Below, in pieces: positions 6,205 through 11,832 of a DNA stretch of 64,000 nucleotides. The DNA comes from Prosthecobacter debontii. Its GTDB lineage: Bacteria; Verrucomicrobiota; Verrucomicrobiia; Verrucomicrobiales; Verrucomicrobiaceae. The stretch is from contig NZ_FUYE01000017.1 of NCBI RefSeq assembly GCF_900167535.1, positions 62,001-126,000 on the forward strand. Direction: 5' to 3'. Made by a program: the position numbers and the translations under genes. The notes beneath the pieces are model-generated. The model was not told where the DNA came from. It did not search any database and was given only the letters and a program-made list of their open reading frames with translations. Position 1 is the first letter of the stretch, and each line of letters begins with the position of its first letter.

Positions 6205-8562
6205 ATGCCCGAATGCCCAGTGCCATGCCGACTTGCCTTTCTGATCCGTGACCTCGGTCACGGCGGGGCTCAGCGGCAGTTGGTAACGCTTGCACGGGCC
6301 TTGGCTCAGCGGAGCGAGTGTAGCCTTACGGTGGTGCATTTCTATCCCGGTCCTATGGAGGCGGATCTCCACGCGGCAGGGATCAAGACGGTGTGCATTG
6401 GCAAACGGCATCGCTGGGATCTGGCGGGTTTTTTCTTCCGACTCCTGCGCACGTTTCGGGAGATGAGGCCGGATGTCATTCATGGCTACCTCCATGAGTC
6501 CAACCTCATGGCGTTGCTGCTGAAGCCGCTGTGCGGGTTTCCCAAAATCGTCTGGGGTATTCGCGACTCTCAGACCGATGCGGCGACCTGGGGGATTCTG
6601 GGGAAACTGAGCTTCCGTCTGAATTGCCTGCTTTCGGGTTATGCGGATCTCATCATCGCTAACTCTCAGGCAGGGCGAAACTATTATCGAAAACACGGCT
6701 ACCCTGCGGAGCGATTCGTGGTGGTGCCCAATGGCATCGACATCAGCCGCTACAGCGCCAAGACATCAGGCTCGACAGGGAAGACCTTCACCCTCATTGG
6801 CCGCCTTCATCCGATGAAGGATCACGCCACTTTCCTCAAGGCCTTGGCTGAGGTGTCAGAGGCTCAGGGACGCATCATCGGTCAGGGAGACGCGGTTTAT
6901 ATGGAGGCCATGCAAGCGCTGGCGTCTGAGCTCGGTGTTCAAGATCGAATCACGTGGGAACCAACTCGGGATGACCTACCCACTCTTTACCCCCTGCTGG
7001 ATTGCGTCGTTTCTAGCTCGGCCTATGGCGAAGGTTTTTCCAATGTCTTGGGTGAAGCCATGACCAGTGCCTTGCCCTGCATCGCCAGTGATGTGGGAGA
7101 CTCTGCGTGGTTAGTGAATGACCCCGCGTGGATTTTCCCCGCCGGAGATGAGGCGGCTCTCGCAGAGAGGATGCGGGCCTTTCTTGCTCTAGCGCCTGAG
7201 GGGCGGCACCAACTCGGCCTGAAAAACCGCCAACGCATTTTGGACCATTTCACCGTTCAGCGCATGGTGGAGAGAACCGCTGCCTTGATCAAACCGTCTC
7301 TGGTAGGGACCCGCTGCGCCGGGTCCGTAGAATCATCGGATGAGGCAGGTATCTCCTCCTACGACGACGCTGCTATCTCACGCTTTCAAAAATTGTCGGA
7401 CCAGACGCAGCGGGTCCCTACCAGCCAGACCAGGGTGCTTTGGATCACCACGGGGCTAGGCACGGGAGGCGCTGAAATGATGCTGACGCAGCTGATCGGT
7501 GGCCTATCCGGATGTCATCATACGGTCATCTCCCTGACTTCTGGGGGCAAATACGTGAAGCCACTGAAATCTCTGGGAGCGACGGTTCACAGTCTAGACA
7601 TGCCTGCGGGCAAACCGACACCGAGAGCCGTATGGCGTCTCTTCAAGTTCGCTCGCCAATCCAGGCCCACCGTGATCATGGGTTGGATGTATCATGGTTG
7701 CCTGGTGGCTTCCTTGGCACGCCTCTCCACTCCCGCAAGAGTGATCTGGAACATTCGCCAATCGCTCTATGACCTTGCCTTGGAGAAACGAGGCTCGGCG
7801 ATGGTCATCCGTGCATTAGCTCTGCTTTCCCGGTTTCCTGAAGCCATCACTTACAACTCGGAGGTGAGTGCCCGACAGCATGAAGCCATCGGTTATCGCA
7901 AAGCACGCACGAGGCTCATCCCCAATGGCTTCGATCTCAGTCGCTGGGGCAGACGTTTAACGCAGCCCTTGAGGCGTGATCAACCTTATCGTCTCGGTCG
8001 TTTCGGTAGATATGCCGCCATGAAAGACTATCCCACCTTTCTCGAGGCCGCAGCCTTGATCGTGAAGAAAGCTCCGCAGGCTGAATTTGTGCTCGTGGGT
8101 ACTGGCGTGGATGAACAAAACGAAGAACTTACCACTCACATCCATCGCCTCAACCTAACAAAAAACGTTCAACTAATGGGTGAACGTCACGATCTCCCAG
8201 AGCTCACAGCATCGCTTGATATCGCAGTCTCATCCTCGGCTTTTGGCGAAGGGTTCCCGAATGTCGTCGGCGAGGCCATGGCGTGTGGTGTGCCGGTTGT
8301 GGCTACGGATATCGGCGATACCGCCTGGGTCATGGGTGACACTGGGCGGTTGGTGCCGCCAAGGAACCCTGTTGCATTGGCCCAGGCCTGCCTGGACATT
8401 CTGCGTCTTCCAGACGAAGAGCGTCGCGTTCTTGGCCATGAAGGGCGAGAGCGCATTGAGAACCACTTTTCCCTTCAGAGTGTCATAGCCGAATTTGAGA
8501 CCTTGCTCAGTCATGGCCCTGAGCGGGCAAGCGTGCCTGCTTCACTGAATCCTGAATACTGA
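6205..8562 (+). CDS. Tandem double glycosyltransferase (two GT4 modules in one chain)
   Basis: The 785-residue protein holds two complete GT-B glycosyltransferases of family 4. Module 1 (about 1-365) starts RLAFLIRDLGHGGAQRQ and carries the donor-site motif GEGFSNVLGEAM at about 275. Module 2 (about 408-785) starts VLWITTGLGTGGAEMM and carries GEGFPNVVGEAM at about 681. Both keep the E-x7-E pair that binds the nucleotide sugar. The modules are clearly related to each other. The linker (366-407) is encoded by a 125-bp inverted-repeat element, so the fusion may be recent. GT4 enzymes add sugars to lipid-linked glycans. The following AsnB-like and O-antigen-ligase genes suggest a role in surface polysaccharide assembly. 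Donor and acceptor are unknown. No frameshift is seen in either module. Confidence 0.88.
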   Translation: MPECPVPCRLAFLIRDLGHGGAQRQLVTLARALAQRSECSLTVVHFYPGPMEADLHAAGIKTVCIGKRHRWDLAGFFFRLLRTFREMRPDVIHGYLHESNLMALLLKPLCGFPKIVWGIRDSQTDAATWGILGKLSFRLNCLLSGYADLIIANSQAGRNYYRKHGYPAERFVVVPNGIDISRYSAKTSGSTGKTFTLIGRLHPMKDHATFLKALAEVSEAQGRIIGQGDAVYMEAMQALASELGVQDRITWEPTRDDLPTLYPLLDCVVSSSAYGEGFSNVLGEAMTSALPCIASDVGDSAWLVNDPAWIFPAGDEAALAERMRAFLALAPEGRHQLGLKNRQRILDHFTVQRMVERTAALIKPSLVGTRCAGSVESSDEAGISSYDDAAISRFQKLSDQTQRVPTSQTRVLWITTGLGTGGAEMMLTQLIGGLSGCHHTVISLTSGGKYVKPLKSLGATVHSLDMPAGKPTPRAVWRLFKFARQSRPTVIMGWMYHGCLVASLARLSTPARVIWNIRQSLYDLALEKRGSAMVIRALALLSRFPEAITYNSEVSARQHEAIGYRKARTRLIPNGFDLSRWGRRLTQPLRRDQPYRLGRFGRYAAMKDYPTFLEAAALIVKKAPQAEFVLVGTGVDEQNEELTTHIHRLNLTKNVQLMGERHDLPELTASLDIAVSSSAFGEGFPNVVGEAMACGVPVVATDIGDTAWVMGDTGRLVPPRNPVALAQACLDILRLPDEERRVLGHEGRERIENHFSLQSVIAEFETLLSHGPERASVPASLNPEY
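7300..7424. repeat. 125-bp element with 19-bp perfect terminal inverted repeats, inside the glycosyltransferase gene
   Basis: The left end CTGGTAGGGACCCGCTGCG (7300-7318) is the exact reverse complement of 7406-7424. Complementarity continues imperfectly for about 10 more bases on each side (GGTCCG at 7322-7327 against CGGACC at 7397-7402). It has no room for a transposase. Its size and structure fit a MITE or REP/BIME-like dispersed repeat. It is read through in frame as the linker of the double glycosyltransferase. No second full copy was seen in this window. Confidence 0.75.
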
Positions 8563-8585: not shown

Positions 8586-10541
8586 ATGTGCGGCATCTCT
8601 GGCTTTTTCACGGTCCCCCGATCACGCTCTTCTGCGCAGATGACAGCGGAGGTCACGCGCATGACCGATGCCATTGTGAGTCGAGGCCCTGATGATCATG
8701 GAGCCTGCGTGGATGGGGAAACTGGCATCGCTTTGGGACATCGGCGTTTATCCATCCTCGATCTGTCACCCTTGGGGCATCAACCGATGACGAGTGCCGG
8801 CGATGGCGGGCGTTATGTCATGGTTTTCAATGGCGAGATCTACAATTTCCAAAGCTTGCGTGCGGAGTTGGAGAAGCATGGCCACACTTGGCGCGGCCAC
8901 TCGGACACGGAAGTGATGCTGGCGGCCTTTGTGCAGTGGGGAATCCCCGAGGCAACACGTCGATTCAATGGCATGTTTGCCTTTGCCGTGTGGGATCGCC
9001 AAGAGCGTGCCTTGCACCTGGGACGTGACCGCCTGGGGGAGAAGCCGCTTTATTATGGTTGGTTAGGTGAGACCTTTCTTTTTGCCTCCGAGCTGAAAGC
9101 CATTCGCCAGTTCCCCGGCTTCAATGCAGCAATCAACCGCGATGCTTTATGCAGTCAGATTCGGTTCAACTACATCCCCGATCCTCAGTGCATCTATCAG
9201 GGGTTTCATAAGCTACCACCGGCCACCTTGCTGACGCTAGGCAACTCGCAGGAGCGACCTCAGCCACAGACTTACTGGTCACTGCGTCAGGTCGTCGAGC
9301 ATGGCGTTGATCATCCATTCAGCGGCACGGATCAGGAAGCCATTGAAGCTTTTGAATCCATGCTCAAGGAAGCCGTGGGCCTGCGCATGGTGGCCGATGT
9401 GCCGCTGGGGGCCTTCCTTTCTGGGGGGGTGGATTCCTCGCTCATCGTCGCGATGATGCAGGCCCAGAGTTCACGCCCTGTGCGCACCTTTACCATCGGC
9501 TTCGATGTGCCGGAATACAATGAGGCGCAGTTTGCCAAAGAAGTGGCCGCGCATCTGCACACGGATCACACCGAGATGTATGTGACAGGGCAGGATGCGC
9601 TGAAGACCATCCCTCTCATGCCCGGGCTGTATGATGAACCTTTTTCAGATTACTCTCAGATCCCCACTTACCTCGTCTGTAAAATGGCGCGCCAGCATGT
9701 GACGGTGGCGCTCAGTGGAGATGCTGGGGATGAGTTGTTCGGAGGGTATGAGCGTTACTTCGTGGGGCGAAATCTCTGGAACAAATTCGCCTGGATGCCA
9801 CCGGTTCTGAAAAAGGCCGCCGCCGGAGGCATGACCCTGCTGCCGCCGCAAACGCTCAATGCGTTAGGCCAAGTCGCGCGCCCAATGCTGCCGAAGCGCC
9901 TGCGGCATGTGCCATTCGGTGACAAGCTGCACAAACTGGCGGAAGTGGTGGCCGCTCCAGGTATGGAGACACTTTACCTCACGCTCATGTCGCACTGGAA
10001 GCAGCCCGCACAGGTGGTCATCGGCGGGCATGATCCACAGACGAGCATCACGAACACGCAGGGCTGGCCACGCGTCAGTGACTTCACCCATCGCATGATG
10101 CATCTGGACATGGAGACTTATCTGCCGGGAGATATCCTGGTGAAGGTGGATCGTGCCGCCATGGGGGTCAGTCTGGAGGGGCGTATTCCCCTGCTGGATA
10201 CCAACCTCATCGAGTTTGCCTGGACGATCCCGTATGCGATGAAAGTGCGTGAGGGCAAAGGCAAGTGGCTGATGCGAGAGACGCTTTACCGACATGTGCC
10301 GAAGGCTTTGATTGATCGACCCAAACGCGGCTTTGGAGTGCCCCTGGAGCATTGGCTACGGGGTGAACTGCGCGAGTGGGCGGAGGATCTGCTGAGTGAA
10401 AGCCGCCTGAAGCGTGAGGGGTATTTCCATCCCGCGCCCATCCGTCAAAAGTGGCAGGAGCATCTGAGCGGCACCCGCAACTGGCACTTCTATCTTTGGG
10501 ATATCCTCATGTTCCAGGCCTGGCTGGCGGAGCAAAAATGA
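8586..10541 (+). CDS. asnB: Asparagine synthase (glutamine-hydrolysing) family amidotransferase
   Basis: A 651-residue class-II glutamine amidotransferase fused to an AsnB synthetase domain. Processing after Met1 exposes the catalytic Cys2 (MCGISGF). The glutaminase domain covers about 1-215, with RGPDDHG and MVFNGEIYNF. The ATP-pyrophosphatase loop is SGGVDSS at about 279-285, and ALSGDAGDELFGGYERY lies near 380. The family includes true asparagine synthetases of about 550-650 residues and exopolysaccharide-cluster enzymes that amidate sugar acids or glycan-linked carboxylates. Its position between a glycosyltransferase and an O-antigen ligase favours a polysaccharide-modifying role, but a housekeeping role cannot be excluded. 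It starts 23 bp after the previous stop, so co-transcription is likely. Confidence 0.9.
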   Translation: MCGISGFFTVPRSRSSAQMTAEVTRMTDAIVSRGPDDHGACVDGETGIALGHRRLSILDLSPLGHQPMTSAGDGGRYVMVFNGEIYNFQSLRAELEKHGHTWRGHSDTEVMLAAFVQWGIPEATRRFNGMFAFAVWDRQERALHLGRDRLGEKPLYYGWLGETFLFASELKAIRQFPGFNAAINRDALCSQIRFNYIPDPQCIYQGFHKLPPATLLTLGNSQERPQPQTYWSLRQVVEHGVDHPFSGTDQEAIEAFESMLKEAVGLRMVADVPLGAFLSGGVDSSLIVAMMQAQSSRPVRTFTIGFDVPEYNEAQFAKEVAAHLHTDHTEMYVTGQDALKTIPLMPGLYDEPFSDYSQIPTYLVCKMARQHVTVALSGDAGDELFGGYERYFVGRNLWNKFAWMPPVLKKAAAGGMTLLPPQTLNALGQVARPMLPKRLRHVPFGDKLHKLAEVVAAPGMETLYLTLMSHWKQPAQVVIGGHDPQTSITNTQGWPRVSDFTHRMMHLDMETYLPGDILVKVDRAAMGVSLEGRIPLLDTNLIEFAWTIPYAMKVREGKGKWLMRETLYRHVPKALIDRPKRGFGVPLEHWLRGELREWAEDLLSESRLKREGYFHPAPIRQKWQEHLSGTRNWHFYLWDILMFQAWLAEQK

Positions 10542-10563
10542 GTTAGCTTTCTCCCGCTTTCCG

Positions 10564-11832
10564 ATGTCACCTTACCCGACTAGCTATCCCGTAGCTCCTG
10601 CACCCTCCGCTTATGCCGGTCGGGCTCTGCCTGCACCGGTCGTGAAAGAGCCGCTATCGCATCGACTGGTCATTTGGGTCTGTGGCACCATTCTCGGCCT
10701 GCTCGCTGCGGATGTGATCATCGGTTCTTACAATGCGGGAATTTCGCCGTTGAAGCCGTCCTGGTTCACCGTGCTGGCCTTCAGCTCCTGCATGGGGCTA
10801 TCCCTCCTGGCGGGTATCCGGTTGGCTCCTGCGGCCCTGCTGGTCTTGCTGCTGCCGTCGGTGCGTCTGTTCGATGCCGCTTTTCTGTCTCGGGCCGTCA
10901 CCAGCCTCCAGGGACAGATGGGCATGGACCATGCCCGTGTGATGCTCGTCATCGTGGTGACACTCGTGGTGCTTTCCACACCAGTGGGGCTTCGGGCGGT
11001 GCGTTGGGCCGCCATCTTAGCCATCTTCATGACCACCGGTTCTGAACTGGCCGAGATGCTTGGAATGGTGAAGTTCACCAGCATCGAGGGGCGTTTCGCG
11101 GGGTTTAACAGCCACCCCAACTTCCCGCCCGTTTTGTTGTGTGAGATGTTAGGCATCACCTTCGCTTTGGTTCGGAGTTTTCGACTCAACTGCCTGCTCA
11201 TCGCCGTCTCCTTCGTCGGCGTCGCACTCACGTATGGACGCAGCGGTTTCGTGGTGCTGATCCTGATGGTGGGGGTTTATGTTTTGGTCAATGCACGGCG
11301 TAACCTCCCTTTTTTGCTGCTGATGGCGGCACTCGCCATTCCCGCAGCCGGGATTGGTTTTGCGGTGCTGCAGAGCCGCACGGAGCAAGGCATCCTCAAA
11401 GATAAAAACACAGCTGATCGTCTCCAAGCCATTTACGAACTGGACTTTGAAAAACTGAAATCCCCCGAACGTGCCAAAGACCTGGCGGATGCTTGGGAAG
11501 GCGTGATGAAAGCGCCCCTGCTCGGCCATGGCACAGGTGTCTCTGGCGTGCTGTGGGCGCCCCACAATGAGTATGTCTCCCTGTGGCTGGAGCTCGGGAT
11601 TCCCGGCCTGCTGCTCTTTGTCGGCACACTCGGTTCCTTGGTCGTGCGCAGCATCATGACCGGTGGGAAGGCCGGATATTTGCTCTTCGCCATCATCGCT
11701 TACACGCCTGCAGGGCAGGGGCGCATCGAGATGCCGCATTACTATCTGGCCCTCTCCACGGCGGCCTTCATTCTGTGGCCGAAGATGTATCGCCTGACGT
11801 TAAGAAGCCCGACCCAAACCGAGGCGGCGTAA
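10564..11832 (+). CDS. O-antigen ligase / polymerase-like (Wzy/WaaL superfamily) membrane protein
   Basis: A 422-residue polytopic inner-membrane protein with roughly ten hydrophobic segments. Its family features are a large periplasmic loop before the last helices containing LLGHGTGVSGVLWAPHNEYVSLWLELGIPG, where the His and the E-x2-L-x2-G pattern are typical of O-antigen ligase family proteins, and an earlier RSGF segment in a transmembrane helix. WaaL joins O-chains to lipid A-core and Wzy polymerises O-units; the two cannot be separated from sequence alone. An N-terminal Pro/Ala-rich tail of about 35 residues is cytoplasmic. It lies 22 bp after the AsnB-like gene and completes a three-gene polysaccharide unit. 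Confidence 0.8.
   Translation: MSPYPTSYPVAPAPSAYAGRALPAPVVKEPLSHRLVIWVCGTILGLLAADVIIGSYNAGISPLKPSWFTVLAFSSCMGLSLLAGIRLAPAALLVLLLPSVRLFDAAFLSRAVTSLQGQMGMDHARVMLVIVVTLVVLSTPVGLRAVRWAAILAIFMTTGSELAEMLGMVKFTSIEGRFAGFNSHPNFPPVLLCEMLGITFALVRSFRLNCLLIAVSFVGVALTYGRSGFVVLILMVGVYVLVNARRNLPFLLLMAALAIPAAGIGFAVLQSRTEQGILKDKNTADRLQAIYELDFEKLKSPERAKDLADAWEGVMKAPLLGHGTGVSGVLWAPHNEYVSLWLELGIPGLLLFVGTLGSLVVRSIMTGGKAGYLLFAIIAYTPAGQGRIEMPHYYLALSTAAFILWPKMYRLTLRSPTQTEAA

What the first reader, a model, noticed from the sequence alone, without database searches (positions are those of the whole stretch)
7300..7424. Inverted-repeat (MITE/REP-like) element exactly at the joint of a double glycosyltransferase
Seen: a 125-bp segment with 19-bp perfect terminal inverted repeats is read in frame as the linker between two complete GT4 modules. 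The flanks are typical C-terminal and N-terminal ends of separate GT4 proteins. Inference: a mobile repeat inserted at the end of the first gene, and because 125 is not a multiple of three the insertion changed the frame, bypassed the stop and fused two tandem genes. This would be a repeat element creating a new bimodular enzyme.
Basis: partly seen in the sequence, partly recalled or inferred. Interest (0 to 1): 0.75.

Follow-up and report, generated by a model that had tools for sequence, protein, structure and literature searches.

The report
REP hairpin inside glycosyltransferase linker
A small mobile hairpin repeat of a known class has landed in the connector of a two-part sugar-transferring enzyme and is read as protein; relatives show the two parts were already joined without it, so the repeat lengthened the connector but did not create the enzyme.

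Summary
In detail: 7300-7424 has 19-bp perfect inverted ends and is read in frame between two GT4 modules. It is a pair of inverted REPs (REPIN-like), each a GTAG head plus a hairpin whose stem covaries. The arm recurs in 34 of 68 family genomes (control 0) and in relatives lies beside REP-associated tyrosine transposase genes (8 of 9). In 46 of 50 examined loci, the sister species included, the double GT4 is continuous in one frame, and only the window's locus has this element. Three loci have separate genes and no such REP. The fusion therefore predates the insertion, which lengthened an existing linker; AlphaFold2 gives no confident structure at 367-406, the REP-coded stretch. In three genomes of another genus the same linker carries an unrelated GTRG-headed REP, and elsewhere in this genome a REP is read in a variable loop of a squalene-cyclase-like protein. 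In-frame REPs and REP dimers are already described, most of the GTAG type in a verrucomicrobium (PMC3733652, passages and section 15). I file it as a new member of a known kind: probably neutral REP capture at a permissive linker.

The parts
6205..8562 (+). double GT4 glycosyltransferase ORF, 785 aa
6205..7293 (+). GT4 module 1 (aa 1-363)
7300..7424 (+). inverted REP pair (REPIN-like element), read in frame as aa 366-407
7302..7326 (+). left REP arm; GTAG head 7303-7306 followed by hairpin GGACCCG-CTGCGC-CGGGTCC
7398..7422 (-). right REP arm in inverted orientation; GTAG head at 7421-7418 on the - strand
7328..7396 (+). spacer between the REP arms, partly alignable to the spacers of two other REP pairs of the genome (C4:204020-204165, C13:40403-40545)
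7426..8562 (+). GT4 module 2 (aa 408-785)

Best explanation
7300-7424 is a REP doublet (two inverted GTAG-headed REPs with a spacer, REPIN-like) of a family spread through the Prosthecobacter-related genomes of this bacterial family. It was inserted into the interdomain linker of a double GT4 glycosyltransferase that was already one polypeptide. The copy persists because the linker tolerates changes of length and the element can be read through in the frame used; the insertion is most likely neutral. Movement was presumably catalysed in an ancestor by the RAYT transposase whose gene lies among such REPs in other genomes. This genome has no close homologue of that RAYT subtype, so the copy is probably a fossil. 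Shown: the element's anatomy, its dispersed relatives, the REP-RAYT association in other genomes, and fusion without the element in the sister and outgroups. Inferred: RAYT-mediated insertion, neutrality, disorder of the linker and present immobility.
For: Arm pattern GGTAGGGANNNGCTGCGYCNNGTCC: 14 matches in the own genome with up to 3 mismatches (reversed-pattern control 1); 34 of 68 family genomes with up to 1 mismatch (control 0 in all 68). At the two stem pairs left free in the pattern, 38 of 39 and 36 of 39 distinct arms pair, against shuffle means of 20.8 and 25.2 (0 of 5000 as high). RAYT-like genes (NCBIfam NF047646, E 5e-15 and 6e-16 for two of them) have REP arms (up to 3 mismatches) within 1.5 kb in 8 of the 9 genomes with a close homologue, control 0; 4 of the 9 had been found through REP clusters, leaving 4 of 5 found independently. 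REP copy number is higher in those 9 genomes than in the other 59 (Mann-Whitney p 6e-5, no correction for relatedness). Fusion: 46 of 50 loci continuous across the linker, 37 of those with a linker of at most 12 residues; this REP in 1 of 50 junctions, the window's own. Tree: G000 with G035 (support 0.94), within a clade of six with four other fused proteins lacking the element (support 0.999). AlphaFold2: mean pLDDT 86.5, under 50 at 367-406.
Against: No strain of the same species was available; the nearest relative is about 69% identical in this protein, so the insertion event itself is not seen and its exact length and footprint cannot be defined. The RAYT matches fall below the NCBIfam cut-off (48.6-58.7 against 80 bits) and Pfam does not call this subtype. 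Low pLDDT at 367-406 is also what one expects where no homologue aligns, so it does not prove disorder. Sister G035 and Brevifollis gellanilyticus G018 have long linkers too (23 and 50 residues) that are not palindromic, so linkers also grow in other ways. A third stem pair (9,22), one side fixed by the pattern, pairs in only 103 of 123 arms. The bases just before the arms show no clear preference for CT, the reported cleavage site (CT 28, AT 28 of 123).
Confidence: 0.87

Rival explanations
1. One reading: the element inserted at the end of the first gene, shifted the frame past its stop and fused two tandem genes into a new bimodular enzyme.
For: Two adjacent separate GT4 genes do exist in G062, G063 and G005, so two genes may be the older state.
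Against: The sister and the other examined members of the genus are continuous across the linker without the element; the three unfused junctions overlap as ATGA and hold neither REP.
Confidence: 0.03
2. The insert is functional: a selected long linker, or an mRNA hairpin (-65.8 kcal/mol) that slows ribosomes between the modules and helps them fold one after the other.
For: Very stable hairpin between the domains; a different REP occupies the same place in G006-G008.
Against: 37 of 46 fused homologues have linkers of at most 12 residues; another REP sits in an unrelated loop; the element was found in no other of 50 junctions.
Confidence: 0.09
3. A chance palindrome or a non-mobile, gene-specific structure.
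For: The complete 125 bp occurs once in the genome.
Against: Arms and spacer have homologues at other loci; 34 of 68 genomes have the arm; stems covary.
Confidence: 0.01

Closest known systems
GTAG-tagged REPs and intragenic REP dimers (Di Nocera et al. 2013, PMC3733652; passages and section 15 read)
   Same: GTAG head, hairpin, dimers in opposite orientation, in-frame location inside ORFs; the verrucomicrobium Opitutus terrae had the most intragenic GTAG repeats; linkers and loops suggested as tolerant sites; different REPs at about the same site in two Xanthomonas recB genes.
   Different: Prosthecobacter is not named in its main text and I saw no REP with this arm in the passages read; here REP-free fused homologues and a second REP family at the same linker are added.
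REPINs of Pseudomonas fluorescens (Bertels and Rainey 2011, PMC3116915; passages read)
   Same: Two inverted REPs with a spacer forming one long hairpin, with stem changes compensated.
   Different: Those are described in extragenic space (1,053 REPs); here a low-copy family with copies inside genes.
REP-associated tyrosine transposases, RAYT / TnpA-REP (PMC2817692, PMC8266576; passages read)
   Same: The same REP arms lie beside RAYT-like genes in related genomes.
   Different: The window genome lacks a close homologue of that RAYT subtype; homologues score below the NCBIfam cut-off.
Rickettsia palindromic elements, RPE (PMC2229807 review, passages read)
   Same: Works alike: a palindromic repeat read in frame inside a conserved protein.
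   Different: R. conorii RPE sequences end in CGTC according to PMC3733652; ours carry GTAG and have a transposase association.

Membership tests
REP (GTAG class) | GT(A/G)G head followed by an imperfect palindrome | tested here: met
   Both arms; the two free stem pairs pair in 38 of 39 and 36 of 39 distinct arms
REP (GTAG class) | multiple dispersed copies in the genome | tested here: met
   14 pattern matches at 11 places in the own genome with up to 3 mismatches, control 1, so some 3-mismatch matches may be chance; up to 61 matches with 1 mismatch in G023
REP (GTAG class) | mostly extragenic | tested here: inconclusive
   Of 11 own-genome places, 3 lie in ORFs with a Pfam domain (C17, C1, and a 3-mismatch match in a DCC1-like gene). 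At 7 of the other 8 no scanned ORF had a domain and at one there was no ORF of 70 aa; 10 of 19 overlapping ORFs were scanned. No gene annotation was available.
REPIN | two REPs inverted, with spacer, folding into one hairpin | tested here: met
   two further pairs in the own genome aligned
RAYT-mobilised REP | cognate RAYT gene flanked by the same REPs | tested here: met
   In relatives: REP arms within 1.5 kb in 8 of 9 close-RAYT genomes, on both sides in some, one side in L155. Not in the own genome: no match at E 1e-10
RAYT-mobilised REP | observed excision or insertion | not testable with these tools
   No reads or same-species strains held
classical MITE | target-site duplication | tested here: not met
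   By eye: no direct repeat of 4 or more bases abuts the two ends
Rickettsia palindromic element | CGTC tag | tested here: not met
   Head is GTAG

The most novel reading that the evidence does not exclude
The joint of this double glycosyltransferase is a recurrent capture site: two unrelated GTRG-headed REP families were independently recruited as the interdomain linker in two genera, and in one of them also as a C-terminal tail. The coding hairpin might serve as a translational pause or a tunable tether between the two catalytic modules.
Probability: 0.1. Interest if true: 0.55.

Novelty: new member of a known kind. Interest (0 to 1): 0.3.

Why it matters
It corrects an attractive but wrong story (a repeat creating a bimodular enzyme) and replaces it with an order of events: fusion first, REP insertion into the linker later. 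It adds a natural example, with homologues lacking the element and a second REP family at the same place, of how small palindromic repeats become protein sequence where the protein tolerates changes of length. It also ties a verrucomicrobial REP family to its likely transposase.

Tried and rejected
Rfam gave only a 6S RNA match far below its gathering score (15.7 against 46.4), rejected. Linkers of G035 and G018 as decayed REPs: no palindrome (z +2.5 and +1.3), and the G018 linker has no second copy in its genome, rejected. Linkers of G029 (L036) and G054 (L040) fold only a little better than shuffles (z -1.4 and -1.1); I did not search their genomes for copies. CT preference next to the arms: not supported. 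The 3-mismatch match inside a DCC1-like gene (C2:265319) may be chance and is not counted as an in-gene REP. Long ORFs overlapping REPs in relatives often look spurious; beside the window I kept only the two with Pfam domains (L016, L061). L049 is cut by its contig end, was undetermined and was left out of the tree, though its ORF crosses the linker in the alignment. L046 has a TAG inside module 2, not at the linker. L238 dropped out of the squalene-cyclase alignment by a script filter. In that alignment L228 reads LVGRRCV at the loop, which resembles a REP-coded peptide; not followed. The mended points of this version: counts of fetched stretches and scanned ORFs, the caveat on pLDDT, and the added junction scan and paper search.

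Full report
Observation. The window carries a 785-aa ORF at 6205-8562 with glycosyltransferase domains in both halves. At 7300-7424 lie 19-bp perfect inverted ends within 28-nt arms at 93% complementarity. It is the longest perfect inverted repeat of its kind in the window, it folds far better than shuffled sequence, and of its six frames only the one used is open.

What the element is. Each arm is a GTAG head followed by a hairpin (GGACCCG-CTGCGC-CGGGTCC on the left), and the two arms are inverted, the plan of a REP doublet. The own genome holds further arms: 14 matches at 11 places with up to 3 mismatches, control 1. They include two other complete pairs whose spacers partly align. With up to 1 mismatch the arm occurs in 34 of 68 genomes of the family, with none for the reversed pattern. 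At the two stem pairs that the pattern leaves free, 38 of 39 and 36 of 39 distinct arms pair, with 0 of 5000 shuffles as high; a third pair, half fixed by the pattern, pairs in 103 of 123 arms. I read the changes at the free pairs as compensatory; the shuffles do not correct for kinship.

The transposase. In G023, G017, G012 and G009 REP clusters surround an ORF similar to RAYT-like genes. The proteins of G017 and G012 match NCBIfam REP_Tyr_transpos at E 5e-15 and 6e-16, those of G009 and G023 at 8e-13 and 6e-16, all below the curated cut-off, and none is called Y1_Tnp by Pfam. A search with the G017 protein found matches in 25 of 68 genomes at 1e-10, nine of them below 1e-40. Of these nine, eight have REP arms (up to 3 mismatches) within 1.5 kb, control 0; the miss, G041, lies near a contig end. 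Four of the nine had been found through REPs, so the independent score is 4 of 5. Genomes with the close RAYT have more REPs (p 6e-5, 9 against 59 genomes, uncorrected for kinship). The window's genome has no match. It has 10 Y1_Tnp genes; of the five I scanned, three are RAYT-like of another subtype. So the copy here is probably no longer mobile; that is inference.

Did it create the fusion? No. One search found relatives of the double protein in 54 of 68 genomes; I examined 50 loci. In 46, the window's own included, the two modules are continuous in one frame across the linker (one of these, L046, has a stop later, inside module 2). In 3 they are separate genes (G062, G063, G005) and one is truncated by its contig. 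Linkers are at most 12 residues in 37 of the 46; the nine longer ones are 13 to 50 residues. A scan of all 50 junctions found this REP only in the window's locus. A tree of the two modules without linkers puts G000 next to G035 (support 0.94), which is fused and has a 23-residue linker that is not palindromic, inside a clade of six (support 0.999) whose other members are fused and lack the element. The separate genes of G062 and G063, which I used as root, and of G005 overlap as ATGA, which suggests two overlapping genes as the older state. The REP came after the fusion. Because linkers vary, the exact inserted length cannot be fixed.

The same place, another repeat. In G006, G007 and G008 the linker of 37-47 residues is also strongly palindromic (z -3.4 to -4.8). 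It contains a different hairpin, GTGCAAGCATCTTGCTTGCAC or close forms, with 33 to 51 matches per genome at up to 2 mismatches and none for the control; the junction scan finds it in these three loci only. Of 107 strand-hits collected, 47 have GT(A/G)G directly before the hairpin and 40 have its complement directly after, 2 both, 18 neither, so this too is a GTRG-headed REP family. It recurs in the C-terminal tail after module 2. In the tree these three form one clade (support 1.0) apart from G000, so at least two independent insertions hit the same linker.

Other genes. In the same genome a degenerate REP pair lies in a squalene-cyclase-like gene (L016), in a loop whose length varies; the REP-coded peptide is absent in the 18 relatives aligned, of 19 loci fetched from 40 other genomes with a match. 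In G013 two arms lie in a beta-ketoacyl-synthase-like ORF (L061).

Why it is tolerated. An AlphaFold2 model on 26 sequences has mean pLDDT 86.5 (505 of 785 residues at 90 or more; pTM 0.51, so the placing of the modules relative to each other is uncertain) and pLDDT below 50 at 1-3, 367-406 and 773-785. The long low stretch is the REP-coded one (366-407). Low confidence is also expected where no homologue aligns, so this is consistent with, not proof of, disorder. The C-terminal low stretch is the other place where REPs accumulate in G006-G008. The simplest account is neutral insertion in a length-tolerant segment. A role of the hairpin in pausing translation is not excluded.

Prior knowledge. 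Di Nocera et al. 2013 (PMC3733652; passages and section 15 read) describe GTAG REPs and dimers inside ORFs, most in the verrucomicrobium Opitutus terrae, propose linkers and loops as neutral sites, and note different REPs at about the same site of recB in two Xanthomonas species. RAYT (PMC2817692), REPIN (PMC3116915), TnpA-REP biochemistry (PMC8266576), a review with RPEs (PMC2229807) and a 2025 REP survey (PMC12306157) were read in passages. The listings of searches (15 of 100, 20 of 46, 10 of 45 and 1 of 1 papers shown) held no title or abstract start on REPs in Prosthecobacter, and one search (REP, glycosyltransferase, intragenic) found no paper; the library lacks most subscription journals. 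The finding is a new member of a known kind.

Noticed in passing
L028, L029, L033 (G007, G008, G006), C-terminal end of the double GT4 ORF: The same GTRG-headed REP family that fills the linker is also translated as a tail after module 2 (peptides such as KVVQASCLHS).
   Followed up: partly
L016 (G000:C1:85176): A degenerate REP pair is read in frame (..LVGTRRTASSLSDTTQRVPA..) in a variable loop of a squalene-cyclase-like protein, giving peptides close to those of the window element.
   Followed up: yes
L061/L140 (G013:C5:307596-307773): Two REP arms are read in another frame (PGRDALRRVRLDA) in a beta-ketoacyl-synthase-like ORF.
   Followed up: partly
L114, L115, L116 (G062, G063, G005): The two GT4 modules are separate genes overlapping by ATGA, possibly the arrangement before fusion.
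   Followed up: partly
L013, L019, L011, L023 (G000 C13, C4, C8): A further hairpin-like repeat (..GTAGGCTGAGCGAAGCGAGGCTACTCGCC.. and similar) seems to recur beside REP arms in the own genome.
   Followed up: no
window 8586-11829: Directly downstream of the GT gene lie an asparagine-synthase-like and an O-antigen-ligase-like (Wzy_C) gene, suggesting a surface-polysaccharide locus.
   Followed up: no
L046 (G036:C564): A TAG stop lies inside module 2 of an otherwise fused double GT4.
   Followed up: no
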